Part shown: positions 19,800 through 24,350 of the stretch, in pieces | Layout of the letters: each line of letters opens with the position of its first letter | Position numbering within the stretch: position 1 is the first letter of the stretch | Virus record (IMG/VR): IMGVR_UViG_3300048672_000349 | Coordinates: 1-24,857 of that record | DNA: 24,857 bases | From: a virus | Reading direction: 5' to 3' (one strand) | The notes under the pieces: model-generated | What the model was told of the DNA's origin: nothing | Database searches by the model: none | The model's input: only the letters and a program-made list of their open reading frames with translations | Made by a program: the position numbers and the translations under genes

Positions 19800-21943
19800 T
19801 ATACACCTTCATTTTCCATAGTGTTAATTCCTGCACTTGGATTCATTGGCTGCTCTGCATTTGGTGCAAATTGTGGATGTGTGTTTTGATCTGGCAATGG
19901 TGCTTCTACTATCCCCTGCATATTTGGGATGGTCGTTATTTCCCCTGCATTTTCATCTATAAAGCCAGCCGATTTATTAAGCTCCCCTGCTATCGGTATC
20001 AGCTCAGAATTTGCCGCTACTTGTGCAGATGCCTGGACACTGCTAAAAAGTGTATCCATATTTTTGTTTGCTGTATCTGCTTGAGTGTTCTTTGCTTCGA
20101 TTTGTTTGTTTTCGTTATCGATTGATTTGCCTTGTGTCTCAACCTGCATTTTTTCAAGTTCTGCCTGTTGCATTGGGTCAGGTTGCGGAGCTTGCGCCCA
20201 GGCTTCTTCTGGAGCTTCAATGTTCATTGCTTCGAGTGCTTGAGTCATAACCCACTTTGGCTCAAGCAATCCCTGAAACTTTCCTGACATTTCAGTCAAC
20301 GCATTTGCTTTCATAATGCGGTGTGATTTGCTTGCTGTCTCTGGGTTGCTGACTGGAATAATGTCGATGCGCTCATCAAAATCAGACGCCATTATGTAAT
20401 TATCTCCGTCTTTAGTTGAGTACGGATAGCCTTCTTCTGGAATATTTTCCAAAATAACATCAGACAACATGGAAAACTCTTGTGTTTGTGCCGAGTGCAA
20501 CCGCTGAAACACTGCACTAAATTGTGTCGAACCTTGCTCAATCAATGCCAACACTGTACCAACTGGCATATTAACTGCTTTAGAATCACCACTCAGTACC
20601 CCGTTGATGCCCGAAAAGTCGCTAACTCCGCCATCAACATACTGCATAGCACTTAACAGCATTGGTGTAGGTTCTTTCGATGGCGGGACAAAAAATGCTC
20701 TCGACAAATCCTCTGGGCTTGCACGTATTTTTCTGAATGTGCGTGGTGGCGGTCTCTTGCCGTCTTTACCTTTTGTCACCTGCCCACGAACTAAATCTAT
20801 TTTAGCTTCGTCGGACATAAAACCACCGCCAAAACTAGCTTCCATTGAGCCATCGATGATTAAGCGCAGCATATCGGTCAACGCATCAATGCTACCCCCC
20901 ATTAAATGATAGAATCCTAGCCCATAAAATCCAAGACCTGAAAAACATTTGTAATGGGCATAACGGACAACGCGCTGCTGAGTTTCATCTGTTGGCTTCC
21001 AGTTACGCTGAACCCTGATAACCTCCTGACTTTGTTTCTCAACCCACACAATATACTCCATTGGGTAATCGTAGCCGTCTTCGATTTCAAGTGCACAATG
21101 ACATTTTAAAATTTCGTGCTGGTTTACATCGGCTATCGCATTAGGTGTCGTACCTTGGCTCTTAAGCTCAACTGCTCTAACCTCATTCACATCCTCGCTT
21201 GACGGCTTGACAATGTCTGATCCTGAATAATACCCGCTCGTTTTATTGCGTTTAAATGTTGCGTTTGATTCAAAATATCGGTGTGTAAACCGCTCAGTTG
21301 ATGCCATACAGGACGCGTTCCAAGGAACTATCATATCCTCTGGCTTAACAAAAACAGCCTTGAATTTTTCCGTGCGCTTGCAGTAATAGACGTGCTTAAA
21401 ACATGATCCGCTTATTCCAATCCTGAACAGCAACATGTCCTGTTCGTTGAACTCGTTGTCCATTCCTTTTGTGTAAAGGTAATTCATAAAATCAGCAACA
21501 CGATTCGATTGCATGACTATGTTTTCATCTTTTAAGCCAACAATGTCAGTCTTGACTATGTTTCCGCTTGCAGGTCTAAGCTCGACTAATGCTCTGGAGC
21601 GCAATTGCTCAACGGCTTTAATAAGTGCTGTGTGGACTGCCGAAGTGCCACCCTCATAATCAGGCTTTGACGCTTCACGGTCTAGTCCACAAGCTTTCAT
21701 TGCCGATTTTTCTTGTTCAATCCACGTTGCCCGTGATGATTCGTCATCTCGAACCCATGTAATAACATCAAGTCCTAGACCGCGTATTTTGCTTGTGTCG
21801 ATTGCATCTGAATCTAGCAAGTTTTGATAGTGACCATCATCCCTGCCAGACTCCATCATTATCTGACTTAGAATGTCATCGCTTAATATGCCATCTTCCA
21901 TCATTGCTGGCTCTGGCTGGTCTAACATTTCGCTATCAATCAT
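19799..21943 (-). CDS. Portal protein
   Basis: The 714-residue protein should form the twelve-fold ring at one vertex through which DNA enters and leaves. Its length is close to that of P22-type portals (about 725). Recognisable parts are LDVITWVRDDESSRATWIEQ and DYEGGTSAVHTALIKAVEQL near the N-terminus. The core runs through RVVRYAHYKCFSGLGFYGLG and FYHLMGGSIDALTDMLRLII, and the wing through INGVLSGDSKAVNMPVGTVL. From about residue 585 it becomes a Gln/Glu-rich coiled coil (QAELEKMQVETQGKSIDNEN), like the barrel of long portals. It overlaps the large terminase stop by 8 bases and directly follows it, as usual. Confidence 0.9.
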   Translation of the reverse strand: MIDSEMLDQPEPAMMEDGILSDDILSQIMMESGRDDGHYQNLLDSDAIDTSKIRGLGLDVITWVRDDESSRATWIEQEKSAMKACGLDREASKPDYEGGTSAVHTALIKAVEQLRSRALVELRPASGNIVKTDIVGLKDENIVMQSNRVADFMNYLYTKGMDNEFNEQDMLLFRIGISGSCFKHVYYCKRTEKFKAVFVKPEDMIVPWNASCMASTERFTHRYFESNATFKRNKTSGYYSGSDIVKPSSEDVNEVRAVELKSQGTTPNAIADVNQHEILKCHCALEIEDGYDYPMEYIVWVEKQSQEVIRVQRNWKPTDETQQRVVRYAHYKCFSGLGFYGLGFYHLMGGSIDALTDMLRLIIDGSMEASFGGGFMSDEAKIDLVRGQVTKGKDGKRPPPRTFRKIRASPEDLSRAFFVPPSKEPTPMLLSAMQYVDGGVSDFSGINGVLSGDSKAVNMPVGTVLALIEQGSTQFSAVFQRLHSAQTQEFSMLSDVILENIPEEGYPYSTKDGDNYIMASDFDERIDIIPVSNPETASKSHRIMKANALTEMSGKFQGLLEPKWVMTQALEAMNIEAPEEAWAQAPQPDPMQQAELEKMQVETQGKSIDNENKQIEAKNTQADTANKNMDTLFSSVQASAQVAANSELIPIAGELNKSAGFIDENAGEITTIPNMQGIVEAPLPDQNTHPQFAPNAEQPMNPSAGINTMENEGV

Positions 21944-24350
21944 CGTCTATAATCTCGTCTTGCTGTAAGTTTTCATCGGCTGTATTTTCAAACCAGCGGG
22001 ATTTTCTCAAGTATATCAAAGCCTGGGTAACTGTGTCGCAATTATGAACAAGTATCCCATTTGCAAAATAACAGTGCGGATATTCTACGCTAAGATTGAA
22101 TACTGGCTGCATAGTATGGATGGATAAATTTGTATTTACCTCTTCTATATCCACTTTCTTGAATTTGGCATTTTGAAGAGCAGAATGTATTTCTGATATT
22201 CTTGTACTCAAACTCTGTACCGCACCAAAAACATAATTTAACGCCTTTGACCGTAGCCCTTGACTTAGCAAGTGCTTGTTTTGCTTTTTCTGCTCTAAGA
22301 CTTGTGATTGCATTATTCCTGTGCCATTCTCTTCCTGCTTCTGACCTATGCCACTCGACTGTAAGCGGTCTGATTTTTTGCATGTGAATGGCACGCGCTT
22401 CTGAATCAATTCTTTTAGGCATTGCCCTATGCACGCTACGCGGTAAGCATTCAAGATTTGAATAATCGTTATTAAACGTATTGCCATCAATATGGTTGAT
22501 TTCGTGGTTTTCAGGAACTTCTTTGCCGCTATAGAATCTCCAAATATCAACATGTAAACCCTTTGGCTTATCAAGCCTGTTTTTCCTTTCTGACAAATAG
22601 TATTTACTATGCTCGGCAATTCTTCTGTATATCCTTCCGTTAAACTCAACTTTCCTAGGAAAGCAATTCGGATTAGGCTGCATATTTTTATCTCCAATAG
22701 TTTAGATGCTTGAGTTACTGTATCAAGTCTAACATAGCCATTGTCGAATGTAAAAATAGGATGGTCTTTAGTTCCTGTTAATGACTTAAAGTTCATTACG
22801 TCCCTAATCCCAGTACACCCATGAGCCAATACTTTTTTAAATCCCATTGGAGTCAATACTTCATCATTATCCGTAATATTTTCTATACGAATATTGCCTC
22901 TTTTTGTTGCAATCATTGTACCTGCAATAAAACAGTAATCAGCACATGGCGGTTGACCGTGTGGAAACGCGGACACAATACCTATAAATTCGTCTACCCA
23001 ATCGCGGCTAGGCGTGTACACTAACCCCATTTCAAAAATAGGCGTGATAGAGTGCGCCCTGCTTATTTTGTCTTCTCCTTTCCCTGGCGAGTAAGATTTT
23101 ATCGTACCCTGCACAGCGTCTTTTAAATCTTGTATGAGGCTCAAACCTGTGGCTTTTGCTTCAATCAAATTCAAATCAGGCTTAAACTTTTTGTCTAAAT
23201 CAATCATCTTTTGTCTCAACTCTGGATAACCGACTTTATCAGCCCACCTGCCAAGAAGCATTATACAGTACCGCTTGCGCTGCGGATGCCAGAATATCCC
23301 CCACCGTGTACAAGCTGAATATGCCGCTGTCTTTGAATCTTTTTCGCTGAATGCTGTATCATAACTATGAAATACCCACTGACAAACAGGCAATGATTCA
23401 TCAGACGCCCACTTGCGCCAGTAGTGAGTTTTGATAATACCTCCTCCCTCAGGAACTGGTCGCTGTTGTAGCTGTGCAGATGTTCCGTGAGTACCTAAAT
23501 CTTCCTTGAGCGATTTAACAGACTTTGCTGAAAACTTTGCTGGGAATAACAGCTCTCCTTTTTTTGTTCGCGGGTCGTTTAGCTCTGGTCTTCCAATATC
23601 TTTGCCAGCGTCAAAAGACGGTGTCCCTTCGTATTCCATCGGAATCGATAACACTGTCCAGTGCGAATTTACTTTTTTTAGCAAATGCCCTGCCAAATCG
23701 TCTTCATGAACACGCTGCATAATCAGCAATACACCAGACTTTTCAAGGTCGTTTAGCCGTGATGATAGAGACCTGTCCCATGTATCATTAACACCAGACC
23801 TGATAACATCAGAGTATGATTTTTTAGCATCAATCGGATCGTCGATCAAAAGACAATCTCCACGTTTGCCAGTATTTGATGCTGTTATCCCCTGCGATTG
23901 CCTAAATCCGCCTTGCTCATTAACAAAAAGCGTTTTTTCGTTTTGTGCGCGTCTAAGATTATTGCCCCATTTCGACTGATACCATTCGCTTGTAACAATG
24001 TCCTTCATCCTCAACGCGTCGCGTATTGCTAACCCTTGTTCGTTAGTAATCGATAAATAACGCGTATCGCCATTATGTATCCAAGTCCAAGCTGGGTACA
24101 TAACAGCTACCAAGATACTTTTTAGTGTTCCTGGCGGAATGTTAATAATCAGCCTCTTATCTGGCAATTCATTGTTATGAAACGCCATCAAATAACCGCA
24201 AATCGTGTCTAAATGCCAATTCCAAATCAACGAAGTTGACTTTTCAATGATATGCCACGCTGATTTTACAAACTGAGATAACGACTGTTCACAAGCTATT
24301 TTTTCAGCCTGTCTTAGTGTTTCCAGCTCTTTAAGCGTTACATCAGACAT
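21936..24350 (-). CDS. terL: Terminase large subunit interrupted by an intein
   Basis: The precursor has 804 residues; removal of the intein (473-770) would leave 506. The ATPase domain has a Walker A-like loop IPPGTLKS (71-78) and Walker B CLLIDD (166-171). The nuclease domain has D331 (HSYDTAF), E397 (LNLIEAKA) and the third motif split by the intein between ADY (470-472) and CDTVTQAL (771-778). The mature enzyme pumps DNA into the prohead and cuts it, so packaging should depend on splicing. The start overlaps the small terminase stop, with AAGGT upstream. The C-terminus EIIDDD precedes the portal start. A complete HNH gene lies inside the intein in another frame (22090-22683). Confidence 0.93.
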   Translation of the reverse strand: MSDVTLKELETLRQAEKIACEQSLSQFVKSAWHIIEKSTSLIWNWHLDTICGYLMAFHNNELPDKRLIINIPPGTLKSILVAVMYPAWTWIHNGDTRYLSITNEQGLAIRDALRMKDIVTSEWYQSKWGNNLRRAQNEKTLFVNEQGGFRQSQGITASNTGKRGDCLLIDDPIDAKKSYSDVIRSGVNDTWDRSLSSRLNDLEKSGVLLIMQRVHEDDLAGHLLKKVNSHWTVLSIPMEYEGTPSFDAGKDIGRPELNDPRTKKGELLFPAKFSAKSVKSLKEDLGTHGTSAQLQQRPVPEGGGIIKTHYWRKWASDESLPVCQWVFHSYDTAFSEKDSKTAAYSACTRWGIFWHPQRKRYCIMLLGRWADKVGYPELRQKMIDLDKKFKPDLNLIEAKATGLSLIQDLKDAVQGTIKSYSPGKGEDKISRAHSITPIFEMGLVYTPSRDWVDEFIGIVSAFPHGQPPCADYCFIAGTMIATKRGNIRIENITDNDEVLTPMGFKKVLAHGCTGIRDVMNFKSLTGTKDHPIFTFDNGYVRLDTVTQASKLLEIKICSLIRIAFLGKLSLTEGYTEELPSIVNTICQKGKTGLISQRVYMLIFGDSIAAKKFLKTTKSTILMAIRLITIIQILNAYRVACIGQCLKELIQKRVPFTCKKSDRLQSSGIGQKQEENGTGIMQSQVLEQKKQNKHLLSQGLRSKALNYVFGAVQSLSTRISEIHSALQNAKFKKVDIEEVNTNLSIHTMQPVFNLSVEYPHCYFANGILVHNCDTVTQALIYLRKSRWFENTADENLQQDEIIDDD
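22090..22683 (-). CDS. HNH homing endonuclease nested in the intein in another frame
   Basis: The 197-residue protein has an HNH core at about 60-85: HEINHIDGNTFNNDYSNLEC, then PRSVHRAM. The probable metal and catalytic residues are H64, N76 and H85. A conserved phage-HNH helix pair (SEAGREWHRNN) lies at about 114-124. A zinc finger Cys-X2-Cys-X13-Cys-X3-Cys (C151, C154, C168, C172) closes the domain. The gene has its own start and ribosome binding site (GGAG eight bases before ATG 22683) and an upstream stop seven codons before the ATG, so it is not an in-frame extension. It lies wholly inside the intein, in a frame shifted from the terminase frame. The last ~22 residues overlap the intein's C-terminal splicing domain. 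It probably cuts unoccupied terminase genes to spread the intein (inference). Confidence 0.9.
   Translation of the reverse strand: MQPNPNCFPRKVEFNGRIYRRIAEHSKYYLSERKNRLDKPKGLHVDIWRFYSGKEVPENHEINHIDGNTFNNDYSNLECLPRSVHRAMPKRIDSEARAIHMQKIRPLTVEWHRSEAGREWHRNNAITSLRAEKAKQALAKSRATVKGVKLCFWCGTEFEYKNIRNTFCSSKCQIQESGYRRGKYKFIHPYYAASIQS
22691..22696 (-). promoter_or_regulatory. Ribosome binding site of the nested HNH gene
   Basis: The minus strand reads TGGAGA here with GGAG ending eight bases before the ATG at 22683. Because the terminase frame runs through the same DNA, this site also encodes Leu-Glu-Ile of the intein. Its quality argues that the endonuclease is translated on its own from within the terminase message. 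Confidence 0.65.

What the first reader, a model, noticed from the sequence alone, without database searches (positions are those of the whole stretch)
22090..22683. Complete HNH endonuclease gene nested out of frame inside an intein
Seen directly: the terminase precursor has intact intein ends (CFIAGTMIAT ... HN|C), while the endonuclease is a separate 197-codon ORF in a different frame with its own GGAG site, start, upstream stop and complete HNH plus zinc finger. The terminase/intein frame stays open across all 594 bases. Under equal codon use, the chance of 197 codons without a stop is about (61/64)^197, near 0.00008, so selection for terminase continuity is likely. Known mobile inteins carry the endonuclease fused in frame between the splicing blocks, while freestanding ORFs are typical for group I introns. 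Here a mini-intein seems to have been invaded by a freestanding HNH gene, making dual-coding DNA and a composite mobile element. I am not aware of this as a standard arrangement; its novelty must be checked.
Basis: partly seen in the sequence, partly recalled or inferred. Interest (0 to 1): 0.92.

Follow-up and report, generated by a model that had tools for sequence, protein, structure and literature searches.

The report
Nuclease gene hidden in phage intein
A phage DNA-packaging gene carries a self-removing protein insert, and inside that insert, in another reading frame, sits a complete DNA-cutting gene; the same two-in-one element turns up in about 160 distinct copies across very different phages and prophages, and it may explain how such inserts come to be split into two genes.

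Summary
TerL (minus strand 24350..21936, 804 aa) carries an intein (22934..22041) with all class 1 splicing residues. A 197-aa HNH gene (22683..22090), with its own Shine-Dalgarno site, ATG and stop, lies inside it out of frame, while the TerL/intein frame stays open.

It is not a one-off. Among 184 distinct HNH relatives, 159 are nested with the same frame offset, 2 with the other offset, 7 lie in a split intein, 16 are free-standing and none is in frame. The intein frame keeps no stops (0 seen, about 210 expected, 70 non-redundant loci). Its amino acids over the overlap are no more constrained than in free-standing controls. The HNH frame is conserved and the splicing blocks are intact.

Best reading: a mini-intein invaded by an HNH homing gene, giving a composite element whose linker is a meaningless but stop-free read of the nuclease gene. 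Mini, nested and 'fractured' split forms share one TerL motif, so nesting may be a step towards split inteins.

The arrangement was noted in one sentence for brucellaphage TerL (2015); an intein-less analogue was published in 2025. It is a new variant of a known kind. Splicing, HNH translation and homing remain untested.

The parts
21936..24350 (-). terL ORF (large terminase), 804 aa precursor with intein
   Evidence: phrog_38 terminase large subunit, 1.3e-67
22041..22934 (-). intein, TerL residues 473-770 (298 aa), C1 to terminal N; +1 Cys at 22040..22038
   Evidence: Hint fold; empty site in L001
22684..22934 (-). N-terminal splicing block (C1, TxxH = TKDH), outside the overlap
   Evidence: pLDDT about 87
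22041..22118 (-). C-terminal splicing block (PVFNLSVEYPHCYFANGILVHN)
   Evidence: pLDDT about 88; its first codons overlap the HNH 3' end
22119..22683 (-). overlap: unconstrained linker in the intein frame, HNH coding sequence in the other frame
   Evidence: linker pLDDT mostly < 50
22090..22683 (-). nested HNH endonuclease ORF, 197 aa, TAG stop
22426..22560 (-). HNH_3 core of the nested ORF (residues 42-86)
   Evidence: PF13392, 1e-12
22168..22233 (-). C-terminal zinc-finger cysteines C151, C154, C168, C172, invariant in the family
22692..22695 (-). GGAG Shine-Dalgarno-like site 8 nt before the HNH ATG
   Evidence: family enrichment

Best explanation
A composite selfish element. A class 1 mini-intein, inserted in the TerL nuclease motif, carries an independent HNH homing endonuclease gene in its linker, out of frame. 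Ribosomes from the terL start read the whole precursor. The HNH region is then read in the wrong frame as a meaningless linker of about 190 aa, which leaves with the intein when the N and C blocks splice and restore TerL. Other ribosomes start at the nested gene's own site and make the HNH, which is inferred to cut intein-less terL alleles so that repair copies in intein and HNH together. Selection holds the HNH protein and the two splice blocks; in the linker frame it only removes stop codons. Shown here: the anatomy, the conservation, the lack of stops and the neutrality of the linker. Inferred: splicing, HNH translation and homing.
For: Intact splice residues in all 87 contiguous loci examined. 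Hint fold for the two blocks and no confident fold for the linker. Best sequence match gp41-1 intein. HNH frame conserved (non-synonymous rate about 0.25 of doubly silent sites), while linker-changing, HNH-silent changes run at 0.63 in nested and 0.65 in free-standing controls. 0 of about 210 expected stops. 161 of 184 distinct HNHs nested out of frame, 0 in frame. HNH nearest I-HmuI. SD enrichment 57% against 36% of control ATGs, p = 0.0003. Intein missing from a 78%-identical TerL (L001) but present in a TerL only 35% identical (L003); L081/L083 have HNH 69% and extein 31%.
Against: No splicing, translation or cleavage data. The window HNH has N where relatives have H at position 63, so this copy may be weakened. 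SD evidence is modest: 43% of starts lack a match of 4 or more bases.
Confidence: 0.84

Rival explanations
1. The HNH is a packaging-associated nuclease that works with the terminase (as in HK97 gp74) rather than a homing enzyme; nesting secures co-expression with TerL.
For: HNH relatives sit next to terS/terL in several phages; PMC4422536 suggested such a link for brucellaphages.
Against: Patchy presence: L001, with 78% identical TerL, lacks it. HNH and extein divergences disagree. The closest structure is the intron homing enzyme I-HmuI.
Confidence: 0.1
2. The HNH is made as an N-intein-HNH fusion by programmed -1 frameshifting, not from its own start.
For: The offset is the one that a -1 shift would reach; not every homologue has a clear SD.
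Against: The HNH frame has a stop 7 codons before the ATG, a GGAG at the right distance and SD enrichment across the family. By eye no X XXY YYZ heptamer lies between that stop and the ATG. Two loci use the other offset.
Confidence: 0.04
3. An RNA-level intron (group I) holds the HNH and the intein resemblance is incidental.
For: Such HNH genes are typical of phage group I introns.
Against: No Rfam match on the region; splice residues C1, TxxH, N and +1 C/S/T conserved and Hint-like.
Confidence: 0.01
4. Assembly or sequencing frameshift that separates an in-frame HNH from the intein.
For: The window is one metagenomic contig.
Against: Same offset in 159 distinct HNH sequences, including isolate phages TJE1 and Highwayman and the sequenced strains Rhizobium lusitanum P1-7 and Bacteroides mediterraneensis Marseille-P2644.
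Confidence: 0.005

Closest known systems
[quoted passage not shown]
   Same: As described there, the same host gene and layout: HNH overlapping the middle of terL, out of frame, called intein-encoded.
   Different: One sentence in one phage group, with no splicing blocks, survey or selection analysis given in the passages read. Sequence not held here, so homology is untested.
ShiLan domain and Pacc40 gp60 (PMC11855218, 2025)
   Same: About 200-codon insertion carrying an HNH gene out of frame while the host frame stays open; mobile distribution.
   Different: DNA methylase host, no intein motifs, thought not to be removed from the protein, no SD found; here complete splicing blocks would remove the linker.
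Fractured genes with split inteins (Dassa et al. 2009; from memory, the paper itself not held)
   Same: Endonuclease gene between N- and C-intein parts; the gp41-1 intein, which I recall as coming from that work, is the best sequence match.
   Different: There the intein is split and, from memory, the endonuclease is a Vsr-like family; here the frame is unbroken and the enzyme is HNH. True split forms occur among the relatives at this TerL motif.
Inteins with in-frame endonuclease (e.g. PI-SceI, phage NrdA inteins)
   Same: Splicing domain plus homing endonuclease in one mobile unit.
   Different: Endonuclease is a separate ORF in another frame, not a domain of the intein.
I-HmuI (HNH homing endonuclease of a phage group I intron)
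   Same: HNH core; only PDB sequence match and best fold match.
   Different: Carried by an RNA intron; here by an intein.

Membership tests
Class 1 intein | Nucleophile Cys/Ser at position 1, block B TxxH, terminal Asn, +1 Cys/Ser/Thr | tested here: met
   C473, TKDH, H769-N770, C771; conserved in 87 loci
Class 1 intein | Hint fold formed by N and C blocks | tested here: met
   blocks pLDDT about 87; matches to a bacterial intein-like domain, gp41-1, NrdJ-1 and DnaB inteins. Moderate TM (about 0.5 of target).
Class 1 intein | Actual protein splicing | not testable with these tools
   needs expression
Canonical mobile intein | Endonuclease in frame between splicing blocks | tested here: not met
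   0 of 184 distinct HNHs in frame
HNH homing endonuclease | HNH catalytic motif and zinc-binding cysteines | tested here: met
   PF13392 1e-12, invariant H64, D66, N76, H85 and four Cys; but N63 where relatives have H
HNH homing endonuclease | Cleaves and copies into empty allele | not testable with these tools
   empty alleles exist (L001); cleavage untested
Fractured gene / split intein | Intein halves in separate ORFs around the endonuclease gene | tested here: not met
   Window frame is continuous; met in relatives L169, L179, L182, L183, L185
ShiLan-type out-of-frame HNH insertion | HNH out of frame in an uninterrupted host ORF | tested here: met
ShiLan-type out-of-frame HNH insertion | No intein splicing motifs | tested here: not met
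   splicing blocks complete
Group I intron | Conserved intron RNA core | tested here: not met
   no Rfam hit at E <= 1

The most novel reading that the evidence does not exclude
Out-of-frame nesting is the general route by which natural split inteins arise. The nuclease gene turns the intein linker into an unconstrained stop-free read; a stop plus a start for the C part fractures the gene around the nuclease; loss of the nuclease then leaves a bare split intein. Mini, nested, fractured and nuclease-remnant forms all occur at one TerL motif.
Probability: 0.4. Interest if true: 0.82.

Novelty: new variant of a known kind. Interest (0 to 1): 0.68.

Why it matters
It shows a widespread third way of joining an endonuclease to an intein, between the in-frame fusion and the fractured gene. 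It gives a clear case of overlapping genes in which one frame is kept open but its sequence is free, because splicing would discard it. It offers a testable origin for split inteins, which are widely used protein-engineering tools, and a new source of gp41-1-like splicing domains. It also means some phage terL annotations are wrong: the C-terminus is cut off, or the HNH or C-part is missed.

Tried and rejected
In-frame homologues: none found in either survey. RNA intron: no Rfam hit. Assembly error: refuted by isolates and independent contigs. Constraint on the linker sequence: not supported; the nested 0.63 and free-standing 0.65 rates agree, though the free-standing set is only 4 pairs from 5 loci and the nested pairs share loci. 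Brucellaphage genomes (NC_019446, KJ133688) were not in the collection, so that claim rests on the paper; JF939047, tried from memory, was another phage. First classification flagged stops in the HNH of L147, L148, L152 and L165; L147 and L165 read intact, L148 and L152 were not re-read. The HNH tree is weakly resolved (69 of 151 branches open), so the count of free/nested switches (up to 11) is only indicative.

Full report
OBSERVATION. On the minus strand the window holds an 804-aa TerL ORF (24350..21936) and, inside it, a 197-aa ORF (22683..22090) in another frame. TerL has the intein start CFIAGTMIAT at residue 473 and HN|C at 769-771. The small ORF has GGAG 8 nt before its ATG, an in-frame TAA 7 codons upstream and its own TAG. 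It matches Pfam HNH_3 at 1e-12; the TerL frame gives only sub-threshold Hint and intein-splicing hits. TerL identity is clear from PHROGs (1.3e-67).

EMPTY SITE AND MOBILITY. The nearest viral contig L001 has a 78% identical TerL without the intein: window PPCAD-Y|intein|C-DTVTQ, L001 PPSAD-LT-DTVTQ. L002 (63%) also lacks it. L003, with only 35% TerL identity, has the same intein and the same nested HNH at the same offset. Within nested pairs the HNH can be far more alike than the exteins: L081/L083 have HNH 69%, N-intein 62%, extein 31%; 26 of 96 such pairs differ by more than 0.1. This suggests horizontal spread, but differing rates could contribute.

A FAMILY. Searches by HNH and, independently, by the intein C-block were classified by script. 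Of 184 distinct HNH sequences, 159 are nested in an open TerL/intein frame at the window's offset, 2 at the other offset (L162/L163 share one; L171), 7 lie in split inteins, 16 have no intein around them, and none is in frame. Hosts include named phages (Tetrasphaera TJE1, Acinetobacter Highwayman, Rhodobacteraceae LS06-2018-MD07) and genome contigs of Rhizobium lusitanum P1-7, Bacteroides mediterraneensis and Frankia sp. AgB32, plus an Archaeoglobales MAG with a partial HNH match. All 87 contiguous cases from the HNH search keep the splicing residues.

SELECTION. With each HNH protein fixed and its synonymous codons shuffled, the intein frame is expected to hold about 3 stops per gene and the third frame many more (means about 8-37). 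Over 70 non-redundant nested loci about 210 stops are expected and none occurs, while all 16 free-standing relatives have 1 to 15. The low stop load of this one frame explains why it is the usual offset. In pairs under 30% diverged, HNH-changing, linker-silent changes run at 0.25 of the doubly silent rate. HNH-silent, linker-changing ones run at 0.63, the same as 0.65 in free-standing genes where that frame means nothing. So the linker is kept open but its sequence is free. The pairs are not independent and doubly silent sites are few.

STRUCTURE. AlphaFold on the intein frame gives confident N and C blocks and pLDDT mostly below 50 for the linker. Foldseek matches are inteins, gp41-1 among the best; the sequence profile also finds gp41-1 first. 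The HNH frame folds well (mean pLDDT 84), and its only PDB sequence match is I-HmuI, also the best fold match (E 0.016, weak).

EXPRESSION. 57% of nested HNH starts have a Shine-Dalgarno match of at least 4 bases against 36% of other ATGs in the same ORFs (p = 0.0003). No Rfam intron is present.

STATES AT ONE SITE. Around the TerL motif HDD..DALRY (insertion points differ by a few residues between lineages) I found four states. Mini-inteins without HNH: L292, L294. Nested forms as here. Fractured forms, with N-part, HNH and C-part as separate overlapping ORFs: Lactobacillus phage CL2, Vibrio phage 1.245.O, L169, L179. A split intein with only an HNH remnant: Brochothrix phage BL3. L089 has an intein-less TerL followed by a free-standing HNH that groups with nested ones at 99 SH-aLRT. 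The order of states is not shown; nested to fractured to nuclease-free is a proposal.

PRIOR ART. PMC4422536 (2015) states that an intein-encoded HNH lies out of frame in brucellaphage TerL. PMC11855218 (2025) describes an out-of-frame HNH in a phage methylase without intein motifs. In the held library I found no survey of nested TerL inteins; subscription papers, including the fractured-gene paper, were not available.

VERDICT. The architecture is not new in kind, but its extent, the one-sided constraint and the link to fractured forms appear to be new.

Noticed in passing
L185 506-2771 (Lactobacillus phage CL2): Annotated terL stops at the N-intein; the C-intein plus TerL C-terminus is an unannotated ORF (2487-2771) behind and overlapping the HNH: a fractured terL.
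   Followed up: partly
L182 709-2604 (Brochothrix phage BL3): terL and gp3 look like two halves of a split-intein TerL with only an HNH zinc-finger remnant (2196-2417) between them.
   Followed up: partly
L183 (Vibrio phage 1.245.O, NC_055736): terL ends in an N-intein; the separate 'hedgehog/hint domain protein' is the C-intein plus C-extein; a divergent HNH lies between.
   Followed up: partly
L090/L091, L088, L108: Single terL ORFs that appear to hold two inteins: one elsewhere in TerL, plus the nested-HNH intein at the nuclease motif.
   Followed up: no
L089 1374-3642: Intein-less TerL directly followed by a free-standing HNH that groups with nested ones: the HNH seems to move in and out of inteins.
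   Followed up: partly
L188 2408-2960 (Brevundimonas phage Poludnitsa): Unannotated HNH gene in the gap between terL and portal.
   Followed up: no
L301 3001-3936: Nested intein/HNH element at what looks like a different TerL site (IDFGYE|C ... HN|CDPTAIVEV).
   Followed up: no
window HNH residue 63 (22497..22495): Asn replaces the nearly invariant His next to the conserved H64; this copy may be weakened or altered.
   Followed up: no
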